From positions 1 to 27,192 of IMG/VR virus record IMGVR_UViG_3300014499_000027: a DNA stretch of 27,192 nt; one strand, 5' to 3'. The notes under the pieces were generated by a model. It was not told where the DNA came from, made no database searches, and worked only from the letters and a program-made list of their open reading frames with translations. Positions 3,665 through 16,912 of this stretch are shown piece by piece. This DNA comes from a virus. Each line of letters starts with the position of its first letter. The first letter of the stretch is position 1. Both the position numbers and the translations under genes were made by a program.

Positions 3665-3675
3665 CACTTAAAGGA

Positions 3676-3702
3676 CAATTACGCAGCAGCTGCTGCAGGT
3701 TG
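3676..3702. repeat. Palindromic element, copy 1
   Basis: The core GCAGCAGCTGCTGC (3683-3696) is a perfect 14-bp palindrome. The left flank CAATTAC is the reverse complement of the right flank of copy 3 in the capsid intron, so this copy is inverted relative to copies 2 and 3. The right flank (AGGTTG) has diverged. It lies between two genes, 12 bases after a stop codon and 33 bases before the next start. There is no T-run, so it is not a standard terminator. Confidence 0.85.
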
Positions 3703-3734
3703 AGATTTTCAGTTTTACTGTGAAAGAGACATAG

Positions 3735-4196
3735 ATGGAAGAGAAAAAATGGTTCACGAGAGAAGTAGAGAAGCTTAACTGGGTACGTATTACAGCCTTC
3801 AGACCCGGTAAGAGCCAGATTCCTATTTTAGTTAGGGGATCGACTAGAGTTTGTTTGAATGAGCCGATCTTTTGTAAGCCTGCCAATATGCTTCATGAAA
3901 CTCCGTATGGGGTTGAGGATAAGATTGTTATAGACTTTTATGCAGTAATATCATTTGGATGGAGTGAATATTATCCCCTTAATGGAGTTTTTATCAACAG
4001 TTGGTATTCGTTTGGTGAAGGGAAAACGATACCTCGCAAAGATTATAATCCTGATAAAGGCATCAAGAGATCAACGATAGATTCAAATATTTTTGGTACT
4101 TTTACTGCAGAAAAAGCTCGCCTATTCCTTGTTGATAGCGATGAAAATAAGCATTTTGAGACTGATGATATAATTGAATGGGTACATATCTTATGA
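3735..4196 (+). CDS. Hypothetical protein, first gene of palindrome-bounded block
   Basis: 153 residues, mixed strands and helices, with many aromatic residues (LNWVRITAFRPG; VISFGWSEYYPLNGVF). The 'NWVRI..' start and the alternation of short strands recall the DUF551-like proteins encoded further right, but the C-terminal signature of that family is absent. The good ribosome site is GAAAGAGA. It overlaps the next gene by four bases (ATGA). With the two following genes it forms a co-translated trio between palindromic copies 1 and 2. Function not recognised. Confidence 0.5.
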   Translation: MEEKKWFTREVEKLNWVRITAFRPGKSQIPILVRGSTRVCLNEPIFCKPANMLHETPYGVEDKIVIDFYAVISFGWSEYYPLNGVFINSWYSFGEGKTIPRKDYNPDKGIKRSTIDSNIFGTFTAEKARLFLVDSDENKHFETDDIIEWVHIL

Positions 4197-4654
4197 GTAA
4201 TTCAGCATGGATTAATACTGATGACTATTTCCCAGGCGCTAGTCATAAAGGGATAATAGTAGTTCACGGAATGATGAATTTGGAGCTTAAAGAACCTTTT
4301 AGACTCCGAACATTTATCACTTTGAAGAATATGAAAGAGAAATTTGAAGAAACAAAGCACATAGGTATGGAATATTATCTTTTTACCAATAAAAGTCCTC
4401 TGAATATCCGACCTATAAGCTTGGAGGGATGCTTTATAAAAGACATTTCTTGTCTCTGTGGATGCAAAGTGTCTAAAGGATTTGATGCATATGGTGAAGA
4501 CCATGATATTTTATTGGGAAAGCTTGATCTTGGCAACATTTTAACGGCTGGTAAATCAGAAATATTTACTTCTCCACCTATGTTCTGTTGGGAACAAGTG
4601 CTTTATTGGCAAAGATTAGAGGATATAAGAGATGAACTGGCAGAAATTAAATAA
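4193..4654 (+). CDS. Hypothetical protein with Cys cluster
   Basis: 153 residues from ATG 4193, which overlaps the preceding TGA. An in-frame ATG at 4178 is inside the previous gene and was not preferred. The segment 'EGCFIKDISCLCGCKVSKGF' carries CLCGC plus an earlier Cys and could bind metal. The N-terminus 'SNSAWINTDDYFPG' again resembles the Trp-Ile start seen in DUF551-like neighbours, but no full family match is visible. It overlaps the next gene by 23 bases. Function unknown. Confidence 0.5.
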   Translation: MSNSAWINTDDYFPGASHKGIIVVHGMMNLELKEPFRLRTFITLKNMKEKFEETKHIGMEYYLFTNKSPLNIRPISLEGCFIKDISCLCGCKVSKGFDAYGEDHDILLGKLDLGNILTAGKSEIFTSPPMFCWEQVLYWQRLEDIRDELAEIK

Positions 4655-4898
4655 AGATTCTCTTGAGGGGCTTAAAGCTATCAAGAGCTATATTTTAGTA
4701 GGCAACCCCAACGATAAAGAATTCCCCTATGATCTGATACTTTTTTTTAAGGAAGATGTACAGGATGGGATACCGAGTTTTTGGTATAGCATGGTTCATC
4801 ACGCATGTTATAAGTGTGGTCAGGTATATGAATATGATGACGAAGACGTTATTAACTGCTATACCCATTTTTGTGTTGTGAATGAGCCATTAGACTAA
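4632..4898 (+). CDS. Small hypothetical protein, MNW-start, CxxC
   Basis: 88 residues starting MNWQKLNKDSLEG. Later comes a 'HHACYKCGQVYEYDDEDV' stretch with a CxxC pair and a preceding His, which may be a small metal site. It overlaps the upstream gene by 23 bases and ends right at palindromic copy 2 (the stop TAA, 4896-4898, shares its last two bases with the element). The MNW start links it loosely to the DUF551-like cassettes at 7.7-9.6 kb. Function unknown. Confidence 0.5.
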   Translation: MNWQKLNKDSLEGLKAIKSYILVGNPNDKEFPYDLILFFKEDVQDGIPSFWYSMVHHACYKCGQVYEYDDEDVINCYTHFCVVNEPLD

Positions 4899-4920
4899 TT
4901 GTGCAGCAGCTGCTGCGTAA
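4897..4920. repeat. Palindromic element, copy 2
   Basis: A 24-base stretch identical to 16877-16900 inside the capsid-gene intron. The core is the 14-bp palindrome GCAGCAGCTGCTGC (4903-4916), with flanks AATTGT on the left and GTAA on the right. It directly abuts the stop codon of the preceding gene. Together with inverted copy 1 it brackets a three-gene block of about 1.2 kb. Confidence 0.9.
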
Positions 4921-4938
4921 ATAGAAAGAAAGAAAATT

Positions 4939-5310
4939 ATGAAGATAAAAACGATATCCGTTAGAGATGAAACCGTCAGATATCTTATTCTAAAAGTGTT
5001 AAACGCGATAGTTGATGAAATGTTTTATCATTTTATAGTGACGGGTAAAAAAGAAGCGTGTGTACCTACTGATCAAAAGATTGAAGCTCTTAATAATTTT
5101 CTTAAAAAGGTTGCTTTTAATAAGCCTGAAGATCATGAAACCTATGCCGGAATAACAGCTGAAATAAGCACCGTGATTAAAATAATAGGCGCGGAGAAAA
5201 AGTTAGCGGCCTTTTTGTTTGATCTATCGCACGAAGTACTTAAAAAATTAAAAATACATAATGTAGAAGGGTTCATTAATGAATACCACGAAGAAAAAGA
5301 AGCTAACTAA
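4939..5310 (+). CDS. Hypothetical helical accessory protein
   Basis: 123 residues, predicted almost all helical, beginning MKIKTISVRDETVRYLILKV and ending with a basic/acidic helix. It is similar in size and composition to the products at 3287 and 5779, but I cannot align them convincingly. Its start follows palindromic copy 2 by 18 bases, with AGAAAGAAAG as ribosome site. The 3' end overlaps the next gene by 32 bases. No known domain. Confidence 0.5.
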   Translation: MKIKTISVRDETVRYLILKVLNAIVDEMFYHFIVTGKKEACVPTDQKIEALNNFLKKVAFNKPEDHETYAGITAEISTVIKIIGAEKKLAAFLFDLSHEVLKKLKIHNVEGFINEYHEEKEAN

Positions 5311-5707
5311 TATTAACTTTGACATATTTATTCACGATGTCCTTTTAAACACCCACGAACAGATGGGTTCAACGTCTGCGGAAGTTCTGACTAAGAAAGA
5401 ATGGGAATTCCTCATTCAAGGTTGGCCTAGAGAAGAAGAGTTATATGTATGGCATAGACCCAATCACAAGGAAGAGGTATTCAGCATATTAAGAAATAGG
5501 GATCCAAATGGCTATGAGCCAGATAGTTTAAATTATATGTATAACTCAGTGCTCTTTAGATCGCATAGTCACGCTGATACTTCGGCTAAGACGCTCAAAG
5601 ATCTTGGTGAATACATAGAGTCTAATTCTCTTACTAACTTTGCTGTTATTTACTGCAGTATGGATGAAGAGCCATATAGAATCATGGTCCCCAATAAGAA
5701 AAAATAA
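5279..5707 (+). CDS. Hypothetical protein with JAMM-like HSH...D segment
   Basis: 142 residues; strong ribosome site (AGAAGGG) before ATG 5279, inside the previous gene. The stretch 'VLFRSHSHADTSAKTLKDL' followed by a strand 'NFAVIYCSMDEEPYRIMV' resembles the JAB/MPN (JAMM) metalloprotease layout: a strand, then H-S-H, then Asp about ten residues on, then a hydrophobic strand. The canonical Ser is missing at the expected spot and the spacing to Asp is one short. A candidate catalytic Glu further upstream cannot be fixed. This is therefore a weak family suggestion. Phage JAMM domains usually occur in tail-assembly or anti-host proteins. Confidence 0.45.
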   Translation: MNTTKKKKLTNINFDIFIHDVLLNTHEQMGSTSAEVLTKKEWEFLIQGWPREEELYVWHRPNHKEEVFSILRNRDPNGYEPDSLNYMYNSVLFRSHSHADTSAKTLKDLGEYIESNSLTNFAVIYCSMDEEPYRIMVPNKKK

Positions 5708-5710
5708 GTA

Positions 5711-5795
5711 ATAGAGAGTAGTAATGAGCATAGAAACAACAATTCATCTGAACAAGTTCAGCAATGAAAGAGGCATAAATGAGCTTAAAGCTTGA
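5711..5795 (+). pseudogene. Relic of a second large-terminase gene start
   Basis: Bases 5711-5760 closely match 6191-6242, which holds the ribosome site and first 12 codons of the large terminase gene. Reading from ATG 5724 gives MSIETTIHLNKF, against MNVETTIHLNKF for the real gene, then an unrelated tail of 11 residues and a stop at 5795. Most base differences are synonymous (gaa/gag, aca/acg, aac/aat), so the copy came from a diverged but functional terminase gene rather than a recent local duplication. The next gene starts at 5779 in another frame. Confidence 0.75.
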
Positions 5796-6150
5796 TCCAC
5801 AACTACTTCAGTTATTCTTATTAAAACTAAAGCATTTTACTGAAGAAATGCATTTAATTCAGCAACTATTGCCGGGAAAAGATAAGGATGAATTGATTGA
5901 GTATTATCTGGATTTAGTAGAGAAGAGTTATTTAGAATCATATTTTCACTTTGCTCATATAGATCAACCTGAATGGCGTGGTATTTTTATTGAAGTTCTT
6001 TTTTCAAAATTCGGGGTACATATGAAAAAAGAGGGAATAGTAGAAATTATTCAGAACGACGTAGATTTGTTTTCGAAGACATTTATTCATAAAGTCCTAA
6101 TGCAGTTTTTTAGAGGCGAATTAGAAGGTATGGAAGATTTGAAGGATTAA
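5779..6150 (+). CDS. Hypothetical helical accessory protein between terminase start copies
   Basis: 123 residues, helical, starting MSLKLDPQLLQLFLLKLKHF with several aromatic-rich helices after it (LESYFHFAHIDQPEWRGIF). No recognised motif. The gene begins inside the tail of the terminase-start relic, with GAAAGAGG as ribosome site, and ends 55 bases before the true terminase gene. It therefore lies between two copies of the same start region and looks like an inserted cassette. A T-rich tract (6162-6181) follows the gene but lacks a GC stem. Confidence 0.55.
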   Translation: MSLKLDPQLLQLFLLKLKHFTEEMHLIQQLLPGKDKDELIEYYLDLVEKSYLESYFHFAHIDQPEWRGIFIEVLFSKFGVHMKKEGIVEIIQNDVDLFSKTFIHKVLMQFFRGELEGMEDLKD

Positions 6151-6205
6151 TTTTTCATCTCCCGCTTTTTTTAGTTTTTTTATTTAAGAAATAGAAAGAG
6201 TAGTA

Positions 6206-7576
6206 ATGAACGTAGAGACAACGATTCATCTGAATAAGTTCAAACCACGAGCATATCAGGTGCCGATTTGTAAGGCGATAGCGTCTGAGGGTGGTAAGTA
6301 TAGAAAGTTGATATGTGTATTGCCCAGGCGGGCAGGTAAGGATGTTCTGTTATGGAATCTGGTAATTAGAGCAGCGCTGAAAGAGGTAGGAAATTACTTT
6401 TATTGCTTGCCCACATTTGCACAGGCGCGAACAGTAATATGGGATTCTATTACTAACGATGGCCAGAAGTTCTTAGACTTCATTCCAAAAGAGATCATTG
6501 CAAAGATCAGGAATGACACGATGCAGATAGTGCTGATTAATGGATCACAGATCAAGCTTATAGGATCAGACTCTTATGATACCAGTATCATTGGATCTAA
6601 CCCCAAGATGATCGTTTTTAGTGAGTACGCACTAGCAGATGAGAATGCTTATAAACTTGCTGCTATGCCCATATTAAGGGCCAATAACGGCATTGTGGTA
6701 ATGATATCTACCCCTCGTGGCAAGAATCATATGTATGAGCTGTTTGAGATAGCAAAGAATAGCCCTGAATGGTTCACTTATTTTCAGACAGTTGAAGAAA
6801 CTCAGCACATTGATATAGAAGAGATTAAGAGGGATATTGAGCGGGGTGAGATAAGCCCCGATATGGCACGCCAAGAATATTATTGCAGCTTTGAAATGGG
6901 ACAGGAAGGGTCACTTTATGCTAAATATATTGATAAAATGCGCCTTGATGGTCGTATTGGCATCGTACCATGGGAGCCTTATCACAAGGTTTATACTAGC
7001 TGGGATCTTGGCATTGCTGATCCAACTTGTATAATTTTCTTCCAAGTAATTGGCGAGTTGGTTAGAGTTATAGATTATTATGAACAATCGGATAGAGCGA
7101 TGGATCATTTTGCCAAAATAGTGATGGAGAAACCGTATGTCTATGCTACGAATGGGCATTTTCCTCCTCATGATATCATGGCTCGCGAGTCTGCTCGTGG
7201 GCTTACTAAGCGTGAGATGTACAAGGAGCTCGGGATCAAATTCACCGAGCCAGTTCTCATTGATATCGAAGATGGAATAGAGCTTGTAAGAAGGACGTTT
7301 AGTAAGATGTGGCTCGATGAGAAGAATTGTAAGCAGCTGATTAAGGCGCTAGAGAACTATCGCTATGAGTGGGACGATAAGATTAAGAGATATAAGAGTA
7401 AACCATTACACGATTGGTCTAGTCACGCGAGCGATTCTATGCGGTATATGTGCGCTGCACTGCCCAAATGTCGCTCTGGTTCGAGCCCTGAAGATCTTGA
7501 AAAGCGGTATCAGGAAGCAATGTATGGAACGAATAGTAGAATGCCGAGTGTGTTTAGAGACGATATAGGATACTAA
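6206..7576 (+). CDS. terL: Large terminase subunit (packaging ATPase/nuclease)
   Basis: 456 residues, within the usual terminase range. The ATPase domain shows a Walker A 'LPRRAGKD' (residues 39-46), a Walker B 'MIVFSE' ending in catalytic Glu140, and the coupling motif 'ISTPRG' (167-172). The nuclease domain shows 'TSWDLGIADPT' with Asp267, a second acidic patch at DYYE (290-293) and 'HDWSSHASDSMRY' with Asp410, the expected RNase-H-like metal triad. It would pump DNA into the prohead through the portal and cut the concatemer. The ribosome site is AAAGAG. The start region is partly duplicated 480 bases upstream, and the stop codon abuts the ATG of a small membrane peptide. Confidence 0.93.
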   Translation: MNVETTIHLNKFKPRAYQVPICKAIASEGGKYRKLICVLPRRAGKDVLLWNLVIRAALKEVGNYFYCLPTFAQARTVIWDSITNDGQKFLDFIPKEIIAKIRNDTMQIVLINGSQIKLIGSDSYDTSIIGSNPKMIVFSEYALADENAYKLAAMPILRANNGIVVMISTPRGKNHMYELFEIAKNSPEWFTYFQTVEETQHIDIEEIKRDIERGEISPDMARQEYYCSFEMGQEGSLYAKYIDKMRLDGRIGIVPWEPYHKVYTSWDLGIADPTCIIFFQVIGELVRVIDYYEQSDRAMDHFAKIVMEKPYVYATNGHFPPHDIMARESARGLTKREMYKELGIKFTEPVLIDIEDGIELVRRTFSKMWLDEKNCKQLIKALENYRYEWDDKIKRYKSKPLHDWSSHASDSMRYMCAALPKCRSGSSPEDLEKRYQEAMYGTNSRMPSVFRDDIGY

Positions 7577-7741
7577 ATGAAAATCGATGATTTTATAGTC
7601 ATAAACTTTATAATTTTCGCTCTTCTGTCATTCCATGCACCTCTTTTTTGGATGCGTTATGCCTCAATGATGGTAACGCTGATCGTCCTCGTAGTTTATT
7701 GCTTTATAATAGAATACGAAACAAGAAAAGGAATTCGATGA
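7577..7741 (+). CDS. Small two-helix membrane protein
   Basis: 54 residues starting at ATG 7577 directly after the terminase stop and ending in TGA overlapping the next ATG. Two hydrophobic segments are visible: about residues 6-24 (FIVINFIIFALLSFHAPLF) and 31-46 (MMVTLIVLVVYCFIIE), with a short basic link (WMRYAS) and a charged tail ETRKGIR. The size and two helices fit a small holin-like or other inner-membrane phage protein, but no lysozyme gene is nearby, so the role is open. Confidence 0.5.
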   Translation: MKIDDFIVINFIIFALLSFHAPLFWMRYASMMVTLIVLVVYCFIIEYETRKGIR

Positions 7742-8346
7742 ACTGGATTAACCCAAGACACAAACTCCCCGTAGATGAACAGCTTATATGGGCACTCTTT
7801 ATAGAGAATAGAGCTGGCGAGCAAAACGGATTTCCTTCTGCAAGTGCTAAGATATGTAAAGCATCTATAGATATGTATGGAGTTGTTGAAGCATCTGAAA
7901 TTACGCATAAGGGATTTCCAGAGGGAGGCGGCAAGTATTTCTTTGAGTGGTGGCATTCGTATCAAGAAGAAGACGCAGACCGTTATTACCATGGACATGG
8001 CGCCTATAGAATGGAAAACATGATTATTGCGTGGATTCCTTTCGAGTCCCTTCCTGCGTGGACTCATATTAACATAGAAGAGTCTAAAAGAATGATCATA
8101 CATTCTGAGCAGTATAAAAAAGGCATTATGATTGCTAAAACAAGAAAAGATATAGAAAAAGCACGAGGAGAAAGCCCTTACTTTATACAGATATCAGATA
8201 GAAAACCCATAGAAGACGGTGTCTATGTTGTTGCGAATAAAGACGGTGTTTGGCTTTGTCGTTATGAGCAGAAGACATGTAGCCCATGGATAGCGCCTAA
8301 TGGATCACTAGTTGACGCATGGTACCCCGTTCCAAATCATTACTAG
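7738..8346 (+). CDS. DUF551-like protein with two repeated domains
   Basis: 202 residues from ATG 7738, with AAAAGGAATTCG just upstream; an in-frame ATG at 7648 is inside the previous membrane gene and was not preferred. The N-terminal half starts 'MNWINPRHKLPVDEQLIWAL' and ends 'MIIAWIPFESLPAW', the first and last signatures of DUF551. The C-terminal part (about 155-202) repeats them: 'FIQISDRKPIEDGVYVVANK' ... 'LVDAWYPVPNHY'. DUF551 proteins are small phage and prophage proteins of unknown function, and two copies in one chain is uncommon. First of a series of DUF551-type genes here. Confidence 0.65.
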   Translation: MNWINPRHKLPVDEQLIWALFIENRAGEQNGFPSASAKICKASIDMYGVVEASEITHKGFPEGGGKYFFEWWHSYQEEDADRYYHGHGAYRMENMIIAWIPFESLPAWTHINIEESKRMIIHSEQYKKGIMIAKTRKDIEKARGESPYFIQISDRKPIEDGVYVVANKDGVWLCRYEQKTCSPWIAPNGSLVDAWYPVPNHY

Positions 8347-8354
8347 GATATTAG

Positions 8355-8606
8355 ATGATTTCCGATTTTCCGATTGCCTATGCATATAAGAAAATAAGAA
8401 AACATGAGGTTAGTTTTAGTATACAGTCTCCTCAGGAGTCCATCGATGATAAGAAATACTTTGATGACCTTGCAGCGCGTGGTCTTGTTGACGAAGAAGG
8501 GTATGAGCTCACTGAAGAAAGGGAACGCATAATTCGTTATAAGAACGATAAGAAGTACACCAAGGCTCAATGGGATGAGTATTTAAAGGAAAGAAGAAAT
8601 GGCTAG
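8355..8606 (+). CDS. Small charged hypothetical protein
   Basis: 83 residues, highly charged towards the C-terminus ('EEGYELTEERERIIRYKNDK' then KKYTKAQWDEYLKERRNG). It is likely helical with no hydrophobic segment. It follows the DUF551-like gene after 8 bases and overlaps the next gene by 8 bases. The ribosome site is weak (AGGAT). No known family. Confidence 0.45.
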   Translation: MISDFPIAYAYKKIRKHEVSFSIQSPQESIDDKKYFDDLAARGLVDEEGYELTEERERIIRYKNDKKYTKAQWDEYLKERRNG

Positions 8607-8793
8607 AAGAAACACTCGTCATATCATAATAAAACAGACAAAGACTCAGAATCCTCATTTGAGAATGATAATGATAATGGGAAGAAAGGACGCCGACGCA
8701 AAGTACGGCGTTGGTATGTATGATAGAGCGAAGGCTTTTTCAGAGGATTGGAAGAGAAGCGATATTCCCATGGATTATGGGATTATGGAATGA
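8599..8793 (+). CDS. Small basic hypothetical protein
   Basis: 64 residues, basic N-terminus (MARRNTRHIIIKQTKTQNP) and a middle 'MGRKDADAKYGVGMYDRAKA'. It has a strong ribosome site (AAGGAAAGAAG) within the preceding gene, and its TGA overlaps the next ATG. Function unknown. The good ribosome site and tight overlaps on both sides argue that it is translated. Confidence 0.45.
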   Translation: MARRNTRHIIIKQTKTQNPHLRMIMIMGRKDADAKYGVGMYDRAKAFSEDWKRSDIPMDYGIME

Positions 8794-9017
8794 TGAATTG
8801 GATTAGTGTTAAAGATAAAATATTAGAAAAACTTAATGATAACGATCTTTTAATAGACGAACCATGCAATCTTATCGATGGGTTTATAAATATACCTCTT
8901 GAGCCCATGTTACTTGAGATAATAATACCCAGAAAATATTATTCAGTCATAAGTGTTATAGGTAAGGAAACGGGAAAGATATATTATATAAGCCTTGATA
9001 GTCTAGGAATTCTATGA
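8793..9017 (+). CDS. DUF551-start hypothetical protein
   Basis: 74 residues from ATG 8793, which overlaps the previous TGA (ATG 8790 is directly upstream and also possible). The first eight residues MNWISVKD are those of DUF551, and the DNA there matches the starts at 9014 and 9311. The rest ('LEPMLLEIIIPRKYYSVISV' and so on) has no DUF551 end signature and looks unrelated. It is best read as a hybrid: a DUF551 start joined to a different body. It overlaps the next gene by ATGA. Confidence 0.45.
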   Translation: MNWISVKDKILEKLNDNDLLIDEPCNLIDGFINIPLEPMLLEIIIPRKYYSVISVIGKETGKIYYISLDSLGIL

Positions 9018-9157
9018 ATTGGATTAGTGTAAAAGATCGGCTTCCACTAAGTGGAGCTATCGTTCTTGGTACTAGTTATACTATCGCGACAAATCTCTGC
9101 GGTTTGCATGTAGTTATGTATGTAAATGATGATTTGAGTATTTTGTGGGGGTTGTGA
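9014..9157 (+). CDS. Truncated DUF551 protein
   Basis: 47 residues: MNWISVKDRLPLSGAIVLG, then about 28 more residues ending DDLSILWGL. It has the canonical start of DUF551 but lacks the 'WMPLP' end found in the full-length copy at 9296. The start overlaps the previous stop, and its own TGA overlaps the next ATG. Probably a broken or shortened copy; it may still be translated. Confidence 0.4.
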   Translation: MNWISVKDRLPLSGAIVLGTSYTIATNLCGLHVVMYVNDDLSILWGL

Positions 9158-9324
9158 TGCTTGAAGAGTGCAAAAATAAATATGTAGTATGGAATTGGGA
9201 AAGAGGGATGAAAACTTTTTGCTGCAAAACTCACGTAGAAAAATATGTCGAAGAGAGGAACGAGCTCAAGAGAGTAAAGATAAGTAAAAGTGAAAATGAA
9301 CTGGATTCCAATGACTTGGATTAG
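9157..9324 (+). CDS. Small Cys-containing hypothetical protein
   Basis: 55 residues beginning MLEECKNKYVVWNWERG with TFCCKTH later, then a charged helix. It starts within the stop of the truncated DUF551 gene (TGATG) with GGGGGT as ribosome site, and overlaps the start of the next DUF551 gene by 29 bases. No family recognised. It could be a chance frame, but the junctions fit the style of this cluster. Confidence 0.35.
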   Translation: MLEECKNKYVVWNWERGMKTFCCKTHVEKYVEERNELKRVKISKSENELDSNDLD

Positions 9325-9652
9325 TGTAAAAGATCGATTGCCTAATGATTCAAAAGAGACTGTTTTGGCTCTCGTTAATAATAAGATTATGATGGGCTAT
9401 TTTCATGCTAGAGAAAGTTGGAATGAGGACCTTAAGGGCGTTAAGAGAAACTATGTTAAATGGCGATACTTTACTCCTTGTATATGGCTAGAAGATAACT
9501 CATGCGATGAATGCGAAACTAAGAAGTCATGTGGCAATCATTGTATTAGTTGTTGTGAAAAAGATTATGAGATATCTCTTTTAATACCTTCTTATGGAAT
9601 TGATGTAGTAACTTATTGGATGCCATTACCGAAGGGACCTGATAATGAATAG
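9296..9652 (+). CDS. DUF551 protein (full length)
   Basis: 118 residues. It starts 'MNWIPMTWISVKDRLPNDS' and ends 'DVVTYWMPLPKGPDNE', the complete DUF551 pattern with an insertion holding six Cys ('DNSCDECETKKSCGNHCISC') that may bind metal. DUF551 genes are frequent accessory genes of tailed phages; their role is unknown. The M-x-W-I unit is doubled at the N-terminus, so the true start could be ATG 9311; GTG 9290 is also in frame. The 3' end overlaps the next gene by 8 bases. Confidence 0.65.
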   Translation: MNWIPMTWISVKDRLPNDSKETVLALVNNKIMMGYFHARESWNEDLKGVKRNYVKWRYFTPCIWLEDNSCDECETKKSCGNHCISCCEKDYEISLLIPSYGIDVVTYWMPLPKGPDNE

Positions 9653-10169
9653 CCTTGTTGAGAAGATAATGAACGTTGACAAAGCAGTCCGTGAGCTCTA
9701 TGCGTCTATGATTGAGATGCTCAATCAAGAGGATATGGACTATAAGATTGAGTTTCAGGATAAAGTATTTGACTTTTGGGCGCCTTTGACCCAGGAAGAG
9801 AAGTATGAGATGGATAGGAATAAACATAATGCCACTACTGCTCTCTTAAAGGATGCTCTCGAAAAGCTTATTAATACTTCATATGCTGAAACTTCGAATA
9901 TAAGAAGCGGACCTACACTAGAAGGTCTACTTACATTTGTCTGGATAAACATAGCAAATCTACAGCGAGCCACTAAGAAACAAGACCAAGTAAGTACTAT
10001 TGTGTCCACTGAATCGTATTCTGTTGACGAAGGAAGCTCAAAAGATCTAGACTATGATAGTATCTATATACAAGCACAAAGAAAGGATCTGTCTGATGAA
10101 GAGAAGTGGGATATTCTCCTCCGTAGTTTCGTGGATAAAAAACCTGTGGTATCAGAGCAATCAGAGTGA
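9645..10169 (+). CDS. Hypothetical acidic phage protein
   Basis: 174 residues, acidic and mostly helical ('MNSLVEKIMNVDKAVRELYA' and so on), with a disordered Ser/Asp-rich stretch near residues 120-145. No domain is recognised. Its start overlaps the DUF551 gene by 8 bases. The last 74 bases overlap another frame that continues to 10419. It is the last or next-to-last gene before the terminator at 10456. Confidence 0.5.
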   Translation: MNSLVEKIMNVDKAVRELYASMIEMLNQEDMDYKIEFQDKVFDFWAPLTQEEKYEMDRNKHNATTALLKDALEKLINTSYAETSNIRSGPTLEGLLTFVWINIANLQRATKKQDQVSTIVSTESYSVDEGSSKDLDYDSIYIQAQRKDLSDEEKWDILLRSFVDKKPVVSEQSE

Positions 10170-10419: not shown

Positions 10420-10455
10420 ACGAAGTTCTCATCCCCCTAATTTATTCGTTTATCG

Positions 10456-10480: not shown

Positions 10481-10497
10481 ATGTTTGTAACAAATAC

Positions 10498-10524: not shown

Positions 10525-10564
10525 GTTAGTGCTGAGGCATTAAACTTTTAAAAAGGAGAGTGGA

Positions 10565-12613: not shown

Positions 12614-12617
12614 TTAG

Positions 12618-12650
12618 GGGTTTACACAAACCCTGCAGGTAATGCTGCAG
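12618..12650 (+). other. Tandem stem-loops between portal and next gene
   Basis: GGGTTT (12618-12623) pairs with AAACCC (12628-12633), and CTGCAG (12633-12638) with CTGCAG (12645-12650). There is no T-run, so these are not terminators. They may stabilise or partition the mRNA ends between the portal and the abundant small protein downstream. Confidence 0.35.
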
Positions 12651-12666
12651 TAACTAAGGAGCCACA

Positions 12667-12942
12667 ATGGCTAAAAGACACCACGGTCACATGAAACACA
12701 AAATGGAAGGTCATTACGAGGGTCATGCAGGTCGTCGTCATCAAGAGATGCAAGACGCAGGTATGATTCGCGAAGACCATTCAGCAATTGCTAATCTTCC
12801 TCAGGAAGTGATGATAAAAAGCTGGGAAGCTCGTGAAATGTATACGCCCGAGAACCTTGATGACACCGCAAAAGGCATTGATCGTCAAATGCATGAAGAT
12901 GGTTCTAAACGTAGCAAACACGAACGTCCCCATAAATACTAA
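12667..12942 (+). CDS. Small His-rich virion-module protein
   Basis: 91 residues. The N-terminus is rich in His and Lys (MAKRHHGHMKHKMEGHYEGH), a possible metal-binding tail. Next comes 'RRHQEMQDAGMIREDHSAIA' plus NLPQEV, a motif shared with the protein at 13157. The C-terminal half (LDDTAKGIDRQMHEDGSKR) is charged. The strong ribosome site is TAAGGAG. Its place between portal and scaffold suggests a minor head or morphogenesis protein, but no function is recognised. Confidence 0.6.
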   Translation: MAKRHHGHMKHKMEGHYEGHAGRRHQEMQDAGMIREDHSAIANLPQEVMIKSWEAREMYTPENLDDTAKGIDRQMHEDGSKRSKHERPHKY

Positions 12943-12945
12943 AGC

Positions 12946-12978
12946 GTCGACAACTTGTCGACAGTTTGTCGGCAGCTT
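12946..12978 (+). repeat. Three tandem 11-bp repeats, partly palindromic
   Basis: GTCGACAACTT, GTCGACAGTTT and GTCGGCAGCTT follow one another with an 11-base period. GTCGACAA and TTGTCGAC (12946-12962) form a palindrome. Units 2 and 3 can also fold into a stem (GTCGAC with GTCGGC) before GCTTGTTTTT, so a weak terminator or attenuator is possible. The spacing equals one helical turn, which would also suit a protein-binding site. Confidence 0.6.
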
Positions 12979-12997
12979 GTTTTTATAAGGAGTGACT

Positions 12998-13147
12998 ATG
13001 CCAGTAATGCCACGGTTTAGTAAGAAAGGAGCTAAAATTGCGTTCAAACTTTTGGGAACACCCGAAAATCTACTCTATAAGCCTAAGAGCAAAAAGAAAG
13101 AGATTGATAAGCAGTTATTGTTCCAAGAAACCACTCGCATAAGGTAA
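12998..13147 (+). CDS. Tiny basic protein
   Basis: 49 residues: MPVMPRFSKKGAKIAFKLLG, then a Lys-rich tail (PKSKKKEIDKQLL) and TRIR. Perfect ribosome site (ATAAGGAGTGACT before ATG). It is basic and possibly nucleic-acid binding. It stands in a run of tiny genes between portal and scaffold. Function unknown. Followed nine bases later by the next gene. Confidence 0.55.
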   Translation: MPVMPRFSKKGAKIAFKLLGTPENLLYKPKSKKKEIDKQLLFQETTRIR

Positions 13148-13156
13148 AGGACAATT

Positions 13157-13387
13157 ATGGATAATTTTAGCGTAAAGTTTGCTTCGGGAACATTCTACGA
13201 CAATATTACGCCTCGTAGGCGGCAGGAAGTAGCAGACTCTCGTATGATCCAAGAGGATCAACAGGCGATGTCTAACTTGCCCACTAAAGGGTTCCAGCGA
13301 ATGTTTGATCCAGGAAGTTTTGATAGGCCACCATTTGGTGATGACGAGGTAGGACCTTCTCCCCGTCGCACTGCAAGAAAGGGATAA
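13157..13387 (+). CDS. Small protein related to the His-rich protein
   Basis: 76 residues. It shares the motif R-R-x-Q-E-x2-D-x2-M-I-x-E-D-x2-A-x2-N-L-P with the 12667 product ('RRRQEVADSRMIQEDQQAMS' against 'RRHQEMQDAGMIREDHSAIA'), so the two are paralogues over about 25 residues. The rest is Pro/Asp/Arg-rich. Ribosome site AAAGGAC. Probably a minor virion or head-assembly protein by position; function not known. Confidence 0.55.
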   Translation: MDNFSVKFASGTFYDNITPRRRQEVADSRMIQEDQQAMSNLPTKGFQRMFDPGSFDRPPFGDDEVGPSPRRTARKG

Positions 13388-13389
13388 TT

Positions 13390-13446
13390 ATGAAAGCAAT
13401 GTGTCACAAGTGCAAAAAAGCACCATGCAAGTGCAAAAGTAAGTAG
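13390..13446 (+). CDS. 18-residue Cys-rich peptide
   Basis: ATG 13390 lies two bases after the previous stop, with AAGGGAT as ribosome site. The product MKAMCHKCKKAPCKCKSK holds four Cys as CxxC and CxC, a compact zinc-knuckle-like pattern with many Lys. It is too short for standard gene finders. Coding is suggested by spacing, ribosome site and the regular Cys pattern, and not otherwise proven. Confidence 0.45.
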   Translation: MKAMCHKCKKAPCKCKSK

Positions 13447-13457
13447 TTATTAGCGAT

Positions 13458-13486
13458 AGGTGGCGTTTGTGAAAATAGCGCCACTT
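13458..13486 (+). other. Intergenic stem-loop
   Basis: AGGTGGCG (13458-13465) pairs with CGCCACTT (13479-13486) over eight bases with one G-T pair and a 13-base loop. No T-run follows. It lies in the 115-base gap before the DUF6496 gene and may be an mRNA structure. Confidence 0.35.
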
Positions 13487-13561
13487 CTTATGTGCGTACC
13501 TTGTATTTCGACCATAAGTTACACAAATCTGGGTGGATTTTTAACCAAAAAGGAGATAATT

Positions 13562-13765
13562 ATGCCAAAACTTAAGCCTACAGCCCCTAAAAAGGCAAAA
13601 AAGAAACGCGTTAAAGAAGAAATGCACAAGTTTAAAGAAGGAAAACTACACTCTGGTTCTAAAAAGGGGCCTGTTGTAGAAAACCCTAAGCAAGCAATTG
13701 CAATTGCTCTTTCTGAAAGCGGACAGTCTAAGAAGAAAAAGAAAAAGCATAAGAAGAATAAATAG
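13562..13765 (+). CDS. DUF6496-like small basic protein
   Basis: 67 residues from ATG 13562 (ribosome site AAAAGGAGAT); an in-frame upstream start at 13460 lacks one. The core 'EEMHKFKEGKLHSGSKKGPV' followed by NPKQAIAIALSESG matches my memory of DUF6496, a short family found in phages and bacteria and characterised by a K-x-G-x-L-x-S-G...QAIAIAL.E pattern. Both ends are runs of Lys. Probably binds nucleic acid, perhaps DNA in or around the head; that is an inference. Function is not established for the family. Confidence 0.65.
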   Translation: MPKLKPTAPKKAKKKRVKEEMHKFKEGKLHSGSKKGPVVENPKQAIAIALSESGQSKKKKKKHKKNK

Positions 13766-13800
13766 AAAAGGACGGCGCATTAGGATCGCTATCCTTTTCT
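13764..13800 (+). terminator. Stem-loop after DUF6496 gene, possible weak terminator
   Basis: AGAAAAGGA (13764-13772, starting within the stop codon) is perfectly complementary to TCCTTTTCT (13792-13800), with a 19-base loop that can add GCG/CGC pairs. The only T-tract is inside the stem, so it may act as partial terminator or mRNA 3'-end protector. Confidence 0.35.
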
Positions 13801-13866
13801 AAAAAAGTAATAGAAGTTCTTTTAAGGGAACGTCATGTAAGATTATCACAAAAGAGGCAGAATACA

Positions 13867-14349
13867 ATGAAAAAAAAACAGACGGTTGGATCCGTTGCGC
13901 TTGATTTGATGCAAAAGACTCCTGAATCTCGTAGTCCAATCGAGATAGAACGAGAAATGCAAAAAGAGTATCTCAAAGAGCTCATAGAGTGTGTTAATAT
14001 TCACAAACCATTACTTATAGGCAATTTCTTTTTAGTAGTTATCACTAAGAATGAGAAGCTTATGCCCAATGTGTTTAGAAACTACTTCTCCGCACGGCAA
14101 TCGTGTCCCACTCCAGACTATGATCAATCAGTGTTTATGTATCATCGAGCTAATGATGCTATTGAATATCTATGGACGATCCCTACAAGGGAAGTTTGTC
14201 ATCACTTAAAGGATAATGCTATCCACGTAGCGCCTGAAGAGCGGCAACTGCTTACATTTATTCTTGAATTTGCAGATGGGACGCTCTATAAACTGTGCAA
14301 AAAGCTTAATAATGAAGAAGAAAAATCACCTTTGATCGTGAAAGGATAG
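13867..14349 (+). CDS. Hypothetical virion-module protein
   Basis: 160 residues, mixed helix and strand, with a hydrophobic strand 'LLIGNFFLVVITKNEKLMPN' and a middle 'VFMYHRANDAIEYLWTIPTR'. No motif or membrane span is recognised. It lies four bases before the scaffold-like gene with a clear ribosome site (AAGAGGCAG). Its conserved-looking order next to scaffold and capsid suggests a head-related role, unproven. The 100-base gap upstream holds the stem-loop described separately. Confidence 0.5.
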   Translation: MKKKQTVGSVALDLMQKTPESRSPIEIEREMQKEYLKELIECVNIHKPLLIGNFFLVVITKNEKLMPNVFRNYFSARQSCPTPDYDQSVFMYHRANDAIEYLWTIPTREVCHHLKDNAIHVAPEERQLLTFILEFADGTLYKLCKKLNNEEEKSPLIVKG

Positions 14350-14353
14350 TAGT

Positions 14354-15274
14354 ATGAACGATATTAACTCATTACCACCAGTACCAACACACGTTATAGA
14401 CGCAATGCAACGTGAAGCTGATAAGAAATTTGGTAAAGTTCCCGGCCTTGATGAGCAACCAGTAGTACAACCTAAACTTAATCCTATGTTGCAGCAGCAT
14501 GAAGAGCCAGTATTTCAGGAAGTACAAGAAACTGTGGATCAAGAACCCACAAATTACCCTGAAAATCCGGAGCCCCAGTCCGAAATATCAGGTGAAGATG
14601 AAGAAGTTGATTTAAGAGAGGTAAAAAAGAGAGTAGCTGAAGCCGAGCAAGTTACTAATTTTAGAGCTATGAAAAGAAAAGCTGAAGCTGCAGAGCGTGA
14701 GCGCGATGAAGCCCTTAAGCTTCTTAAAAAATTAGCTGCTCAACAAGAAGCTTTAAAACCAGAGCCCCAGGAGCCTGAAGAAGTTGATACTTTTGGTATG
14801 AATCCCGATGATCTTGTTGAAGGAAAACATCTGAGTAAAGTAGCTCGTGAGATAAAAGCGCTTAAGCAACAACTTGATGCTGCTCAAAATCAAAACTATA
14901 TGAGCACCACCGAAGCACGCCTCAAGGCGCAGTTTCCTGACCTCGATAAGGTACTTACACCAGACAACATAGAAACGTTTAAATACGCCTATCCTGAGCT
15001 TGCTTCTACGATAGATTCAACCAAAGATATCTATACTAAGGCAGTTTCGGCCTATACAATGATCAAGAAGTTCGGCGTCTATCAAGAACCCGGATTCAAT
15101 GCTGAAAAAGAGATTGCCAAGAAGAATGCAGCTAAACCGCGTCCTTTGGCAAGTGTTGCTCCACAGCAGGGTGATAGTCCAATGTCACGAGCTAATGCTT
15201 TTGCGAATGGGTTAACCAAGGAACTTCAAGAGCAGATGTGGAAAGAGATGAGTCAGGCAAGGAAGGATTATTGA
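14354..15274 (+). CDS. Probable scaffolding protein
   Basis: 306 residues, strongly acidic, Gln/Glu/Pro-rich at residues 30-85, then a coiled coil about 88-140 ('EAEQVTNFRAMKRKAEAAER' and on) and a second helical part 165-185. The C-terminal region is Ala/Lys-rich and ends 'LQEQMWKEMSQARKDY', a likely capsid-binding basic helix. This composition and the place just upstream of the capsid gene fit phage scaffolds, which guide capsid assembly and then leave. No sequence signature is decisive. Its stop overlaps the next start (TGATG). Confidence 0.6.
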   Translation: MNDINSLPPVPTHVIDAMQREADKKFGKVPGLDEQPVVQPKLNPMLQQHEEPVFQEVQETVDQEPTNYPENPEPQSEISGEDEEVDLREVKKRVAEAEQVTNFRAMKRKAEAAERERDEALKLLKKLAAQQEALKPEPQEPEEVDTFGMNPDDLVEGKHLSKVAREIKALKQQLDAAQNQNYMSTTEARLKAQFPDLDKVLTPDNIETFKYAYPELASTIDSTKDIYTKAVSAYTMIKKFGVYQEPGFNAEKEIAKKNAAKPRPLASVAPQQGDSPMSRANAFANGLTKELQEQMWKEMSQARKDY

Positions 15275-15477
15275 TGAGAAAAAAATCTTTATATTGTACT
15301 CACATGAGTAATATGCCATCAGGCGTTCAAATAAAAATGTTTGTTATTTCTGATTCTGATGGGCAACGTTATATAATTTGTGATGATTGCAATAATGATT
15401 ATGTTATCGGCAAAGAAGAGTCTTTTCCTAAGAATGGAATAGAATTGACTAATATTGATCCATCAGAAAGACAATAG
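15274..15477 (+). CDS. Small CxxC hypothetical protein
   Basis: 67 residues from ATG 15274 overlapping the scaffold stop; a longer frame from 15238 lies inside the scaffold gene. It carries C8-T-H-M near the start and 'YIICDDCNNDYVIG', so Cys8/His10 and the CxxC pair could form one zinc site, as in small zinc-ribbon proteins. Function unknown. The tRNA starts eight bases after its stop. Confidence 0.5.
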   Translation: MRKKSLYCTHMSNMPSGVQIKMFVISDSDGQRYIICDDCNNDYVIGKEESFPKNGIELTNIDPSERQ

Positions 15478-15485
15478 ATTTACCC

Positions 15486-15562
15486 GTCCGTGTCGTCTAA
15501 ATGGTTAGGACCTCAGGTTTTCAACCTGAAAATGATGAGTTCGATTCTCTCCACGGATGCCA
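15486..15562 (+). tRNA. tRNA-Glu (anticodon UUC)
   Basis: A 77-base cloverleaf with encoded CCA. Acceptor stem GTCCGTG pairs with CACGGAT (G1-U72 wobble). D-stem GTCT/GGAC. Anticodon stem TCAGG/CCTGA with loop TTTTCAA gives anticodon TTC, which reads Glu GAA/GAG. T-loop TTCGATT is normal, but its stem ATGAG/CTCTC has two mismatches (U-U, A-C), so it may be weak or decaying. It lies in the same orientation between the scaffold and capsid genes, so it would be cut out of the late transcript. GAA/GAG codons are common in this phage. Confidence 0.85.
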
Positions 15563-15727
15563 TTTACTTGCATTCAATTTCGCACTCGTCCTATACTATC
15601 CTTAGCGTCTAAGAAGGATCGCTCCCTTCAGAGCGTCAATAGAGCCATCGCTCAGCTCACAGGCGTCAGTACGCAAGAATCGACCTACTTGCAAACCCGC
15701 GTATCAACCCTTGTTCAAGGGAATACT

Positions 15728-16013
15728 ATGTCAATTACTACTACGAGTTCATTACCTGCTCCGGTGCAGCAGAGTTTTAGTTATAAACTCTTATCTGTTC
15801 CGGTTCCAAATATGATCCACAAAATACCTGCGATGCGTAAGAATATGCCCCGTAATGGTGGTACAACACTGCGTATGCGTCGTTATAACCCTCTTAACAC
15901 TGCGATGGTTCCACTAGGAAACTCTGGTGTTACTCCACCACCTCAGAATCTCACTGCAGTAGATATCGATGCTAAGATCAGTTTTTACGGTAAAGGTGCC
16001 GTAACAGTTCACT
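15728..16013 (+). CDS. Major capsid protein, exon 1
   Basis: N-terminal part of the capsid protein (95 codons and one base). It starts MSITTTSSLPAPVQQSFSYK and runs to 'DAKISFYGKGAVTV', typical of the N4-gp56 / P22-coat-type capsid family, where this piece is followed by a D-P-V-L-x-E segment. Here the frame instead meets TGA at 16013-16015, and the DPVLNE segment only appears at 16936, so the gene is split by the intron. I chose ATG 15728 (ribosome site AAGGGA); the frame open from 15557 has no such site. The exon is given up to T16013, the U expected before a group I intron; other junctions up to six bases earlier keep the frame. Confidence 0.72.
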
Positions 16014-16161
16014 GAGAATGACCTATGTTCAGTTGAACGAGCAGGTTAACAAATTGTTCTTTGAAATTTCTTGGTTTTGTAGCAGATAGCCTGCTTTAAA
16101 TCCGCTCTGATTGACTTGGAAGCCCTAACGTAAAGACGAGGGTGACAAGGGCGAAGATATT

Positions 16162-16692
16162 TTATCCTAAGCGATTTAGTTCTTTACAGCGAAGCCAAAG
16201 TTCCTTTCTTTTTTGAAGGACTGCATCAGAAACATTCCATCCAGTTTTACCAACGGTTTTTCTGTATTCTAGAACTACATCGGCTTGTTTACGCTTTATT
16301 AATAAATAGGGTTTTATAAATCTAAGAGCTGCTTCGAGGTCTTTCCCAAATATATGCCATCGATAACATTTTTTTCTTCCTTCGATGTCTTTTCGTTTAT
16401 CAAATTGACCTCCAAACACAAATTTAAGTTCATTCATTAGCTCGAGGGAAGTATTGACGACGGTTAATCGGCACACATAGTAATCTTTTTTCCTAGATTT
16501 ATTGTCAGGAGCAAGATGTTCTATACCAATACTGCCTTCACCGTCTATTATGCCTGCTAGATAGATCCAATTTTCTTTTACTGAAAGAGCGCGGAGATTG
16601 CGAATTTGGTCACATCCATCGCAAGGACACCTACTAAGATTATGCTCGTGGTCACATTTATTACACAGGCAAACGTTAAGACTATGATCCAT
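16162..16692 (-). CDS. LAGLIDADG homing endonuclease, antisense to the host intron
   Basis: 176 residues. 'NWIYLAGIIDGEGSIGIE' (41-58) is the LAGLIDADG helix with catalytic acid (Asp50/Glu52 region). The rest has the beta/helix pattern of the family ('VCRLTVVNTSLELMNELKFV', 'YRWHIFGKDLEAALRFIKPY'). One motif implies a homodimer. The enzyme would cut intronless capsid alleles and spread the intron. An N-terminal Cys cluster (C-x-C-x2-C at 8-13 and at 22-27) suggests a zinc site, unusual for this family. It is on the minus strand inside the P6 loop, so it needs its own antisense transcript. GAGGAA before the ATG is a good ribosome site. The 3' end overlaps P6 pairing by a few bases. Confidence 0.87.
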   Translation of the reverse strand: MDHSLNVCLCNKCDHEHNLSRCPCDGCDQIRNLRALSVKENWIYLAGIIDGEGSIGIEHLAPDNKSRKKDYYVCRLTVVNTSLELMNELKFVFGGQFDKRKDIEGRKKCYRWHIFGKDLEAALRFIKPYLLIKRKQADVVLEYRKTVGKTGWNVSDAVLQKRKELWLRCKELNRLG

Positions 16693-16708
16693 AGATTCCT
16701 CACAATTG

Positions 16709-16724
16709 TCCCACAGTTGTGGGA
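16709..16724. promoter_or_regulatory. 16-bp perfect palindrome upstream of the endonuclease gene
   Basis: TCCCACAGTTGTGGGA has 7-bp arms around a central GT. It lies 16 bases before the start of the minus-strand endonuclease gene. It could be an operator, or in the intron RNA a hairpin that shields the region. No promoter boxes were found with confidence. Confidence 0.45.
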
Positions 16725-16874
16725 TAAAGATAAAACAACATAATTATGGATACAGCGTACCATAAATAGGATAAAATGTCACGCTGAGAGACTGAGGCGA
16801 GTGGACACCGAAAGGTGAAGCGACAGTCCGAACTGTATGGAGACATACAGAGGGAGGAATAACAAGACTCCCCG

Positions 16875-16904
16875 CCAATTGTGCAGCAGCTGCTGCGTAA
16901 TTGG
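16875..16904. repeat. Palindromic element, copy 3, within the intron 3' part
   Basis: A 30-base palindrome: CCAATT (16875-16880), GT, the core GCAGCAGCTGCTGC (16883-16896), GT, AATTGG (16899-16904). It forms the last hairpin of the intron, eight bases before the terminal G. Bases 16877-16900 are identical to 4897-4920. The copy is the longest of the three and may be the most intact. Confidence 0.9.
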
Positions 16905-16912
16905 TCATAAAG

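What the first reader, a model, noticed from the sequence alone, without database searches (positions are those of the whole stretch)
3676..16904. Three copies of a palindromic element, one inside an intron hairpin
GCAGCAGCTGCTGC occurs at 3683, 4903 and 16883. Copies 2 and 3 are identical over 24 bases although 12 kb apart; copy 1 is inverted and shares 19 bases. For a 14-mer this repetition is far beyond chance. Two copies sit between genes and one forms the last hairpin of a group I intron. This recalls palindromic elements that insert in RNA loops (rickettsial palindromic elements, fungal mitochondrial double-hairpin elements), but I do not know a phage example of this one.
Basis: partly seen in the sequence, partly recalled or inferred. 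Interest (0 to 1): 0.85.

Follow-up and report, generated by a model that had tools for sequence, protein, structure and literature searches.

The report
Nuclease-gene palindrome scattered in a phage
A short palindrome repeated in this uncultured phage, once inside the last hairpin of an intron, turns out to be the same palindrome that sits in or beside genes for a poorly understood bacterial nuclease family, which suggests a small mobile or decoy DNA site.

Summary
The repeats are real: GCAGCAGCTGCTGC lies at 3683, 4903 and 16883, plus a diverged fourth copy at 16704. Copy 3 forms a hairpin in the P9.2 position of a LAGLIDADG-bearing group I intron (inferred 16047-16922) in the major capsid gene. 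It is optional there: 3 of 27 parsed introns have it (1 of 24 found by capsid similarity alone).

The surprise is what it is. In bacterial genomes, AATTNN-GCAGCAGCTGCTGC-NNAATT lies in or near a DUF1016/YhcG PD-(D/E)XK nuclease gene in 14 of 16 loci; with TT/AA flanks only in 7 of 11; with neither in 0 of 38. In DUF1016 genes not chosen for it, a palindrome with changing, complementary arms recurs upstream of the PWGHN codons, beyond what the protein explains (39 of 45 loci). It is even read in two frames. The phage records examined lack DUF1016.

Best reading: this phage group carries stand-alone, dispersed copies of a DUF1016 site. Whether they move (REP-like) or act as decoys is not shown, nor is recognition by DUF1016. 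No empty site could be found for copies 1 and 2. A second oddity, a 29-nt core-less mini-intron at 15992-16020, is reported in passing.

The parts
3676..3702 (+). Palindrome copy 1 (core 3683-3696), between + strand ORFs, inverted relative to copies 2 and 3
   Evidence: RNA hairpin with internal loop, not clearly better than shuffles (14 of 200 as good); identical in sister phage G001
4895..4924 (+). Palindrome copy 2 (core 4903-4916), just after the stop codon of ORF 4632-4898
   Evidence: identical in G001
16875..16904 (+). Palindrome copy 3 (core 16883-16896) = hairpin in the P9.2 position of the intron
   Evidence: identical 29-nt hairpin in G002/L084, variant in L102
16704..16727 (+). Diverged fourth palindrome AATTGTCCCACAGTTGTGGGATAA inside the intron, upstream of the endonuclease start
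   Evidence: family D2; z -3.8; same arms as an in-gene DUF1016 palindrome in L253
16047..16922 (+). Group I intron in the major capsid gene, inferred borders CAGGT|TAAC...GAATG|TACC
   Evidence: by comparison with intronless relatives; 92% identical intron in L102
16162..16692 (-). LAGLIDADG homing endonuclease ORF in the intron, antisense to the capsid gene
   Evidence: PF00961 E 3.7e-6

Best explanation
The palindrome is the DNA site that belongs to DUF1016/YhcG PD-(D/E)XK nucleases. In bacteria it lies inside the nuclease gene, upstream of the PWGHN codons, or close to the ends of its open frame. In this phage group, where no examined record has a DUF1016 gene, it is a stand-alone dispersed repeat: two copies between genes here, one in the P9.2 hairpin of the capsid-gene intron, and others at different places in related phages. 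Most likely mechanism: a DUF1016 nuclease of the host or of a co-infecting element recognises the palindrome, probably as a hairpin or cruciform, and cuts. Repair of such breaks now and then copies the short palindrome to new places, as REP sequences depend on a RAYT enzyme encoded elsewhere. Copies last where an extra hairpin does little harm, such as between genes or in a free ribozyme loop; the palindrome then travels with the intron when the intron homes. Shown here: the sequences, their positions, the link to DUF1016 and conservation at DNA level. Inferred: recognition, cutting, copying, and that the phage copies came from such a system.
For: Genome scan for AATTNNGCAGCAGCTGCTGC, 65 stretches. 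A DUF1016 gene lies in 13 of 16 loci with AATT on both sides, in 7 of 11 with TT/AA on both sides, and in 0 of 38 others. L150 makes it 14 of 16: its palindrome lies 136 nt from a DUF1016 domain on the same contig. In 89 DUF1016 loci not chosen for palindromes there are 38 strong palindromes against 1 and 0 in two shuffles. 39 of 45 motif-bearing loci are more palindromic than synonymous recodings of the same protein (p<0.05, uncorrected; 26 at p<0.01). The same palindrome is read as NCAAAAAQ in L137 and as EFCSSCCR in L118 at the same alignment columns. 7 of 9 named DUF1016 records fetched show it in the gene. Of 12 viral stretches with the half-flanked palindrome, all 4 flanked by AATT on both sides belong to this phage group: L008, L102 and L108 by DNA or tblastx matches, L100 with 66% capsid and 61% portal identity. 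No DUF1016 in G000, G001, G002 or in the records of L100, L102, L108.
Against: No binding, cutting or movement was shown. No host is known, so no DUF1016 gene can be tied to this phage; the capsid protein was not found in 86 genomes of the Dependentiae phylum, which shows little. The phage records may be fragments, so their lack of DUF1016 is not final. No empty site was found for copies 1 and 2: the neighbouring genes had no relatives outside G001 in the loci and the scan used. The copies of window, G001, G002 and L102 are imperfect at the two positions between AATT and the core (GT/GT, GC/AC, AC/AG); those of L100 and L108 are perfect. Copies beside a DUF1016 gene do not always share the arms of the in-gene copy: they do in L137/L215, L267, L209 and L212, but not in L226, L245 and L311 or Pseudanabaena. 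2 of 9 named DUF1016 records have no palindrome. In 42 of the 89 unselected loci one search placed no PWGHN motif; 29 of these list no palindrome at all. The exact 22-mer common to the two versions of copy 4 is absent from all viral contigs.
Confidence: 0.42

Rival explanations
1. Decoy or self-mimic: the palindrome in the DUF1016 gene controls or restrains the nuclease, and the phage keeps copies to titrate or mislead a host DUF1016 defence enzyme.
For: DUF1016 proteins match PDC-S02, a candidate phage-defence family in PADLOC, at E 9.9e-143 (L137). The phage carries several copies of one arm type. Copies 1 and 2 are unchanged between the window and G001, while 12 differences crowd into 385 nt between them.
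Against: PADLOC lists only a candidate; no defence activity is shown here. A copy inside an intron hairpin is an odd place for a decoy. No host is known.
Confidence: 0.2
2. The copies between genes derive from the intron: the intron carried the hairpin in P9.2 and recombination or reverse splicing left its 3' end elsewhere.
For: Copy 1 matches the intron's 3' end inverted over 32 nt at 88%, reaching beyond the hairpin. The hairpin is identical in two introns at different sites (window and G002).
Against: G001 has copies 1 and 2 but a different intron without the palindrome. Copies 2 and 3 share only the palindrome and its edges. L100 and L108 have copies with other flanks. It does not explain the DUF1016 link.
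Confidence: 0.13
3. The phage copies are the phage's own RNA hairpins (processing or stability sites), alike to the DUF1016 palindromes by convergence.
For: All four window copies can fold as RNA hairpins, with G-U at most imperfect pairs on the + strand, though copy 1 folds no better than 14 of 200 shuffles.
Against: The fully flanked palindrome has 22 fixed bases; 4 such loci in viral contigs, all in one phage group, is far beyond chance. A control palindrome of another common DUF1016 arm type gave 4 viral stretches, each matching on one flank only. L102 has a C-A mismatch in P9.2 where the window has G-U. No terminator-like site was found around the four copies.
Confidence: 0.15
4. Chance or coding bias: GCAGCAG is a common Ala/Gln codon run.
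For: Five of seven viral records holding the 19-mer are of another, GC-rich phage type (59-62% GC), where the site lies in a long frame coding FTQQLLQYC.
Against: Those five lack the AATT flanks. In the window the copies do not lie in + strand genes and 2e-5 are expected.
Confidence: 0.02

Closest known systems
REP sequences with RAYT (Y1) transposases (recalled)
   Same: Short palindromes, some beside the gene of one nuclease-type protein, often with arms like that gene's own copy, others alone elsewhere
   Different: The partner is a PD-(D/E)XK protein, not an HUH transposase. The palindrome is also inside the gene. No GTAG foot. No Y1_Tnp in six phage records.
Rickettsial palindromic elements (RPE)
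   Same: Palindromes in intergenic regions, functional RNAs and, in different reading frames, coding sequence
   Different: RPEs are about 100-150 nt (passage of PMC4316617); these share 22-32 nt. The passages I read of that paper treat RPEs and DUF1016 separately.
Fungal mitochondrial double-hairpin elements (recalled; related titles seen in a listing only)
   Same: Hairpins that occur in introns and between genes
   Different: One hairpin, not two; bacteria and phage; link to a nuclease gene
Phage group I introns with homing endonucleases (T4 td type, recalled)
   Same: P1 with terminal U-G, 3' hairpins P9, P9.1, P9.2, terminal G, insertion in a conserved phage gene
   Different: LAGLIDADG gene on the antisense strand; P9.2 carries a DUF1016-type palindrome in 3 of 27 parsed introns

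Membership tests
DUF1016-linked palindromes (as defined in this report) | Centre CAR(N)YTG, complementary arms, AATT-like outer ends | tested here: met
   Copies 1-3 CAGCTG, copy 4 CAGTTG; AATT on at least one side of each
DUF1016-linked palindromes (as defined in this report) | DUF1016 gene in or next to the palindrome | tested here: not met
   0 of 3 phage records G000-G002, 0 of 7 further virus records. The phage copies are orphans of the family at most.
REP/RAYT | Y1 HUH transposase in the genome | tested here: not met
   0 of 6 phage records; a host could supply it
REP/RAYT | GTAG tetranucleotide at the foot of the palindrome (recalled) | tested here: not met
   Sequence of the four copies, read by eye
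Rickettsial palindromic element | About 100-150 nt element | tested here: not met
   22-32 nt of shared sequence; length
Rickettsial palindromic element | Insertion in genes and functional RNAs without breaking them | tested here: inconclusive
   Optional in P9.2, in DUF1016 genes read in two frames; splicing not tested
Group I intron | Match to Rfam Intron_gpI | tested here: inconclusive
   Window intron: no RF00028 among matches up to E 10. L015: none up to E 1. Relative L075: 28.4 bits, E 1.9e-5, below the gathering score of 50.
Group I intron | P1 with U-G at the 5' splice site; intron ends in G | tested here: met
   GCAGGU/GCCUGC and ...GAAUG| (read by eye)
Mobile element | Empty site and target duplication | tested here: inconclusive
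   P9.2: L079 has CCCCGCCA-GTAA-TGGTCAT where the window has the palindrome, no duplication seen; for copies 1 and 2 no relatives to compare were found

The most novel reading that the evidence does not exclude
DUF1016/YhcG nucleases and a palindrome kept inside their own coding sequence form an unrecognised two-part genetic system across bacterial phyla. The protein acts on a hairpin or cruciform whose sequence it carries in its own gene, and phages and introns carry loose copies of that site as mobile hairpins or as counter-defence decoys.
Probability: 0.35. Interest if true: 0.9.

Novelty: new variant of a known kind. Interest (0 to 1): 0.76.

Why it matters
DUF1016/YhcG is a widespread predicted nuclease family whose function I found nowhere stated; PADLOC lists it as a candidate phage-defence protein. 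A palindrome inside its own gene, kept at DNA level in several phyla with changing arms, is a concrete and cheap lead to its substrate. Stand-alone copies in a phage group, one of them in a ribozyme hairpin, connect that nuclease to phage biology and give a test of whether short palindromes can be moved by a PD-(D/E)XK enzyme.

Tried and rejected
Rejected: ordinary terminator (0 terminator-like sites around the copies). Rejected: conserved P9.2 part of the intron family (3 of 27). Rejected: chance. Rejected: that the in-gene DUF1016 palindrome is only a by-product of the protein motif (and the two reading frames); the motif [IF]VQQ...[AG]Q[IL]PW does code for something palindrome-like, so that control was needed.

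Inconclusive: RNA or DNA level. In 51 in-gene palindromes, chosen for at least 10 of 13 pairs, imperfect pairs on the gene strand are A-C 20, G-T 5, other 40. That gives no sign of a sense-RNA hairpin; part of the A-C excess comes from how the loop was set. In the window the imperfect inner pairs are mostly G-U on the + strand, in L102 C-A.

Led nowhere: a rigid search for AATT-arm-AATT palindromes in phage loci missed even the window copies because of their imperfect inner pairs; its counts (0 in the window, 3 against 8 shuffled in capsid loci, 1 against 0 in G001/G002 and in terminase loci) say nothing. Megablast of 25 kb of the window against phages found nothing. A short-query search in phages gave 92 records, none covering 80% of the query. 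No solved relative of DUF1016 by sequence. The AlphaFold model of the L137 DUF1016 protein is weak overall (mean pLDDT 58.6; blocks between residues 21 and 140 mostly 77-93, one at 62), so I ran no fold search; in it the palindrome-coded residues fall on a helix, 109-115. The viral DUF1016 scan found 2 loci only, because it needs exact peptides; their palindromes have another build.

Corrections to my notes: they say 51 intronless relatives and 14 out-of-frame mini-inserts; the counts are 52 and 13.
Full report
What was checked. The palindrome GCAGCAGCTGCTGC is present three times exactly and is far beyond chance (2.1e-5 expected from composition). Copies 2 and 3 share 24 bases, copy 1 shares 19 in inverted orientation, and copy 1 against copy 3 runs over 32 nt at 88%. 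A fourth, diverged palindrome, AATTGTCCCACAGTTGTGGGATAA, lies at 16704-16727. The window is a whole 27,192-base IMG/VR record of an uncultured phage with a P22-type portal and a terminase. Six phage records have a related capsid protein; the one cultured phage among them has 26% identity.

The intron. Comparison with capsid genes of 80 related viral loci (the best 80 of at least 595) places it. In 52 of the 80, the two conserved parts of the capsid gene are exactly 27 nt apart, coding TYVQLNEQV or the like; 27 have insertions and L082 lacks the first part. In the window the intron runs from 16047 to 16922, CAGGT|TAAC...GAATG|TACC, and carries a LAGLIDADG gene on the minus strand. The group I class rests on P1 (GCAGGU/GCCUGC), on the T4 td-like 3' end (recalled) and on a relative, L075, that matches Rfam Intron_gpI below its gathering score (28.4 bits against 50, E 1.9e-5). 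The window intron itself gave no such match, nor did L015.

The palindrome in the intron is optional. Of 30 intron-bearing sequences (27 of the 80 loci, G001, the window and L102), P9.2 could be parsed by pattern in 27. Of these, 24 have other hairpins of 9-27 nt and 3 have the palindrome: the window, L084 (= G002) and L102. The window and L102 were picked for the palindrome; among the 24 parsed loci found by capsid similarity alone it is 1 of 24. L102 has the same intron at 92% identity with a variant, CCAATTGCGCAGCAGCTGCTGCACAATTGG. G002 has a hairpin identical to the window's, but its intron's 3' end lies about 22 nt further downstream in the gene (by eye); its 3' end matches over 55 nt (94.5%), plus one 29-nt stretch elsewhere in that locus. 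L079, 88% identical over the end of the intron, has a minimal hairpin, CCCCGCCA-GTAA-TGGTCAT, in the same place. The four window palindromes can all fold as RNA hairpins; three beat nearly all shuffles, copy 1 does not (z -1.5).

Other places in the same phage group. The sister record G001 (99.7% over the first 16 kb) has copies 1 and 2 unchanged but another intron without the palindrome. In 2.9 million viral contigs, AATTNNGCAGCAGCTGCTGC occurs in 12 stretches. Four have AATT on both sides: L008, L102, L108 and L100. L008, L102 and L108 match the window directly; the record of L100 has capsid 66%, portal 61% and terminase 47% identical. L010 is G001; the other seven have one flank only. In L108 the palindrome lies between genes; in L100 it overlaps a 63-codon minus-strand ORF of doubtful status; both places differ from those in the window. 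A control with another common DUF1016 arm type, AATTNNGCAACAGCTGTTGC, gave 4 viral stretches, each matching on one flank only. Of the 7 records with the 19-mer TGCAGCAGCTGCTGCGTAA, 5 are coding matches (FTQQLLQYC) in a phage type of 59-62% GC.

The link to DUF1016. The same pattern in 84,980 species genomes gave 65 stretches. Comparing the loci with two DUF1016 proteins (tblastn) and sorting by flanks: DUF1016 in 13 of 16 loci with AATT on both sides, in 7 of 11 with TT/AA on both sides, in 0 of 38 of the rest. L150, one of the three exceptions, is cut at the locus end; its palindrome (G017:C1:399965-399986) lies 136 nt from a DUF1016 domain, making 14 of 16. In the TM6 record L132 the DUF1016 gene has one palindrome on each side; in the Dependentiae record L137 copies lie inside the gene, centred 24 nt after it, and further out.

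Not an effect of the choice. From four draws of genomes (PF06250 in 25 of 86, 48 of 148, 39 of 92 and 6 of 119), each giving at most 30 best-scoring loci, I took the 89 new loci L243-L331. They hold 38 strong palindromes against 1 and 0 in two shuffles; 45 phage capsid loci as a second control hold 7 in 567 kb. Of the 89, 45 carry the PWGHN-type motif as searched. In these, 39 are more palindromic near it than random synonymous recodings with the gene's own codon use (p<0.05 uncorrected; 26 at p<0.01). The loci are related, so these are not 45 independent events. The palindrome centre lies 14 to 111 nt before the PWGHN codons, by subfamily. In 40 distinct in-gene palindromes (chosen for at least 10 of 13 pairs, so the total is raised by construction), pairs 3 to 6 from the centre are complementary in 40 of 40 with two to four pair types each, and all cells together give 455 of 520 against at most 362 when partners are shuffled within columns. 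The centre is mostly CAR(N)YTG: the innermost pair is G-C in 19, A-C in 12 and G-T in 7 of 40. Against the rule: in 42 of the 89 loci one search placed no motif, and 29 of those list no palindrome at all.

DNA rather than protein is kept. In L137 the palindrome is read as NCAAAAAQ, in L118 as EFCSSCCR, at the same alignment columns. In named records the usual reading is [IF]VQQ followed by [AG]Q[IL]PW. There, 7 of the 9 records that I fetched (of 15 phage and 475 plasmid records with a match) have at least 11 of 13 pairs in the gene: Simkania, Pseudanabaena, Nostoc, Leptolyngbya, Cupriavidus, Frigoriglobus and Hymenobacter. Deinococcus QL22 and Wolbachia phage WO do not. Copies outside the open frame were found in 14 distinct loci; in 10 of them one lies within 100 nt of a frame end (frames run from stop to stop, three of them, L249, L301 and L304, may be parts of a gene, so that the copy is really inside, and the L245 copy has another build). 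Where a locus has both, the arms agree in L137/L215, L267, L209 and L212 but differ in L226, L245, L311 and Pseudanabaena. Between loci the arms differ: GTGCAGCAG, TTGCAACAG, GTCCCACAG, GTCGCGCAG and others. Window copy 4 has the arms of L253 (GTCCCACAG).

What it may do. [quoted passage not shown] PADLOC lists the family as candidate defence system PDC-S02. From this I infer, without proof, that the palindrome is the enzyme's site. For the phage, which has no DUF1016 in the records examined (they may be fragments), I rank trans-mobilised copies first and decoys second. The RNA or DNA level stays open: in-gene copies show no excess of G-U on the gene strand (5 G-T against 20 A-C), while window copies show mostly G-U.

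Literature. GCAGCAGCTGCTGC occurs in 2 papers, both unrelated by title. DUF1016 with 'palindrom' gives 3 papers; I read passages of one, PMC4316617, and saw the other two in the listing only. DUF1016 or YhcG gives 48 papers, 30 of them seen in a listing; of PMC1189080 I read passages. DUF1016 with 'inverted repeat' gives none, a combined nuclease-palindrome search none, and PDC-S02 gives 4, listing only. So these searches found no earlier report; the library holds open-access papers only.

A second finding in the same gene. Between FYG and TYV of the capsid gene lies a 29-nt insert, 15992-16020, that cannot be read through. 19 sequences carry such inserts of 28-38 nt (16 of the 80 loci, G001, the window and L102; L073 is a twentieth by eye; L025/L026 and L017/G001 are identical inserts). 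All 19 have UACGGU|...GCCGUA, a six-pair P1 with U-G at the border, and end in G. In all 19 the four bases before GCCGUA pair with the first four of the next exon, with changes on both sides (AGGU/ACCU, AUGU/ACAU, ACGU/ACGU, AAGU/ACUU, GGGU/ACCU): 76 pairs in total against at most 70 with partners swapped. 13 are out of frame; the 6 of in-frame length contain a stop (by eye). A helix joins the rest of the insert to the 26-nt exon behind it in most carriers (140 pairs against at most 127 swapped; only 4-5 pairs in L017, G001, L075 and L087). With L073, the insert occurs in 17 of 27 intron-bearing loci and in 0 of 52 intronless ones. In L075, Rfam's group I model takes its P1 from this insert and its core from the intron behind it. 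The bold reading is a mini-intron with both splice-site helices but no catalytic core, cut out by the ribozyme of the intron downstream. Nothing was tested in RNA, and a literature search on phage group I introns with exon skipping (10 of 30 listed; passages of PMC11878797) showed nothing like it but was not aimed at it.

Noticed in passing
window 15992-16020: 29-nt insert in the capsid gene with group I P1 (UACGGU/GCCGUA) and P10 (AGGU/ACCU) and a terminal G but no catalytic core; unreadable in all 19 carriers; present in 17 of 27 intron-bearing relatives (one by eye) and 0 of 52 intronless ones. Possibly a mini-intron spliced by its neighbour's ribozyme.
   Followed up: partly
window 16162-16692 (-): LAGLIDADG endonuclease gene antisense to its host intron and capsid gene; best PHROG is named HNH endonuclease although Pfam says LAGLIDADG_1.
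   Followed up: no
window 3869-4253: All 12 differences between window and sister phage G001 in 3400-5100 lie in these 385 nt, inside the three-gene block between palindrome copies 1 and 2; no relatives of these genes outside G001 were found.
   Followed up: partly
window 5715-5760 and 6197-6242: The 46 nt around the start of the terminase gene are duplicated 482 nt upstream at 89% identity.
   Followed up: no
window 7730-9336: Four diverged copies of a 34-nt stretch around gene starts (MNWI...), spaced 221-1055 nt.
   Followed up: no
window 15486-15562: tRNA-Glu (TTC) just upstream of the capsid gene; the listed ORF start at 15557 overlaps it, so the real start is more likely the ATG at 15728.
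   Followed up: no
L263 (G020): DUF1016 gene remnant with internal stops on the same 3.3-kb locus as a perfect AATTTTGCAGCAGCTGCTGCAAAATT.
   Followed up: no
L111 and L166: Fully flanked palindromes in bacterial genomes without DUF1016 in the 8-kb locus; no PF06250 match in the whole genome of L111 (G016); possible stand-alone copies in bacteria.
   Followed up: no
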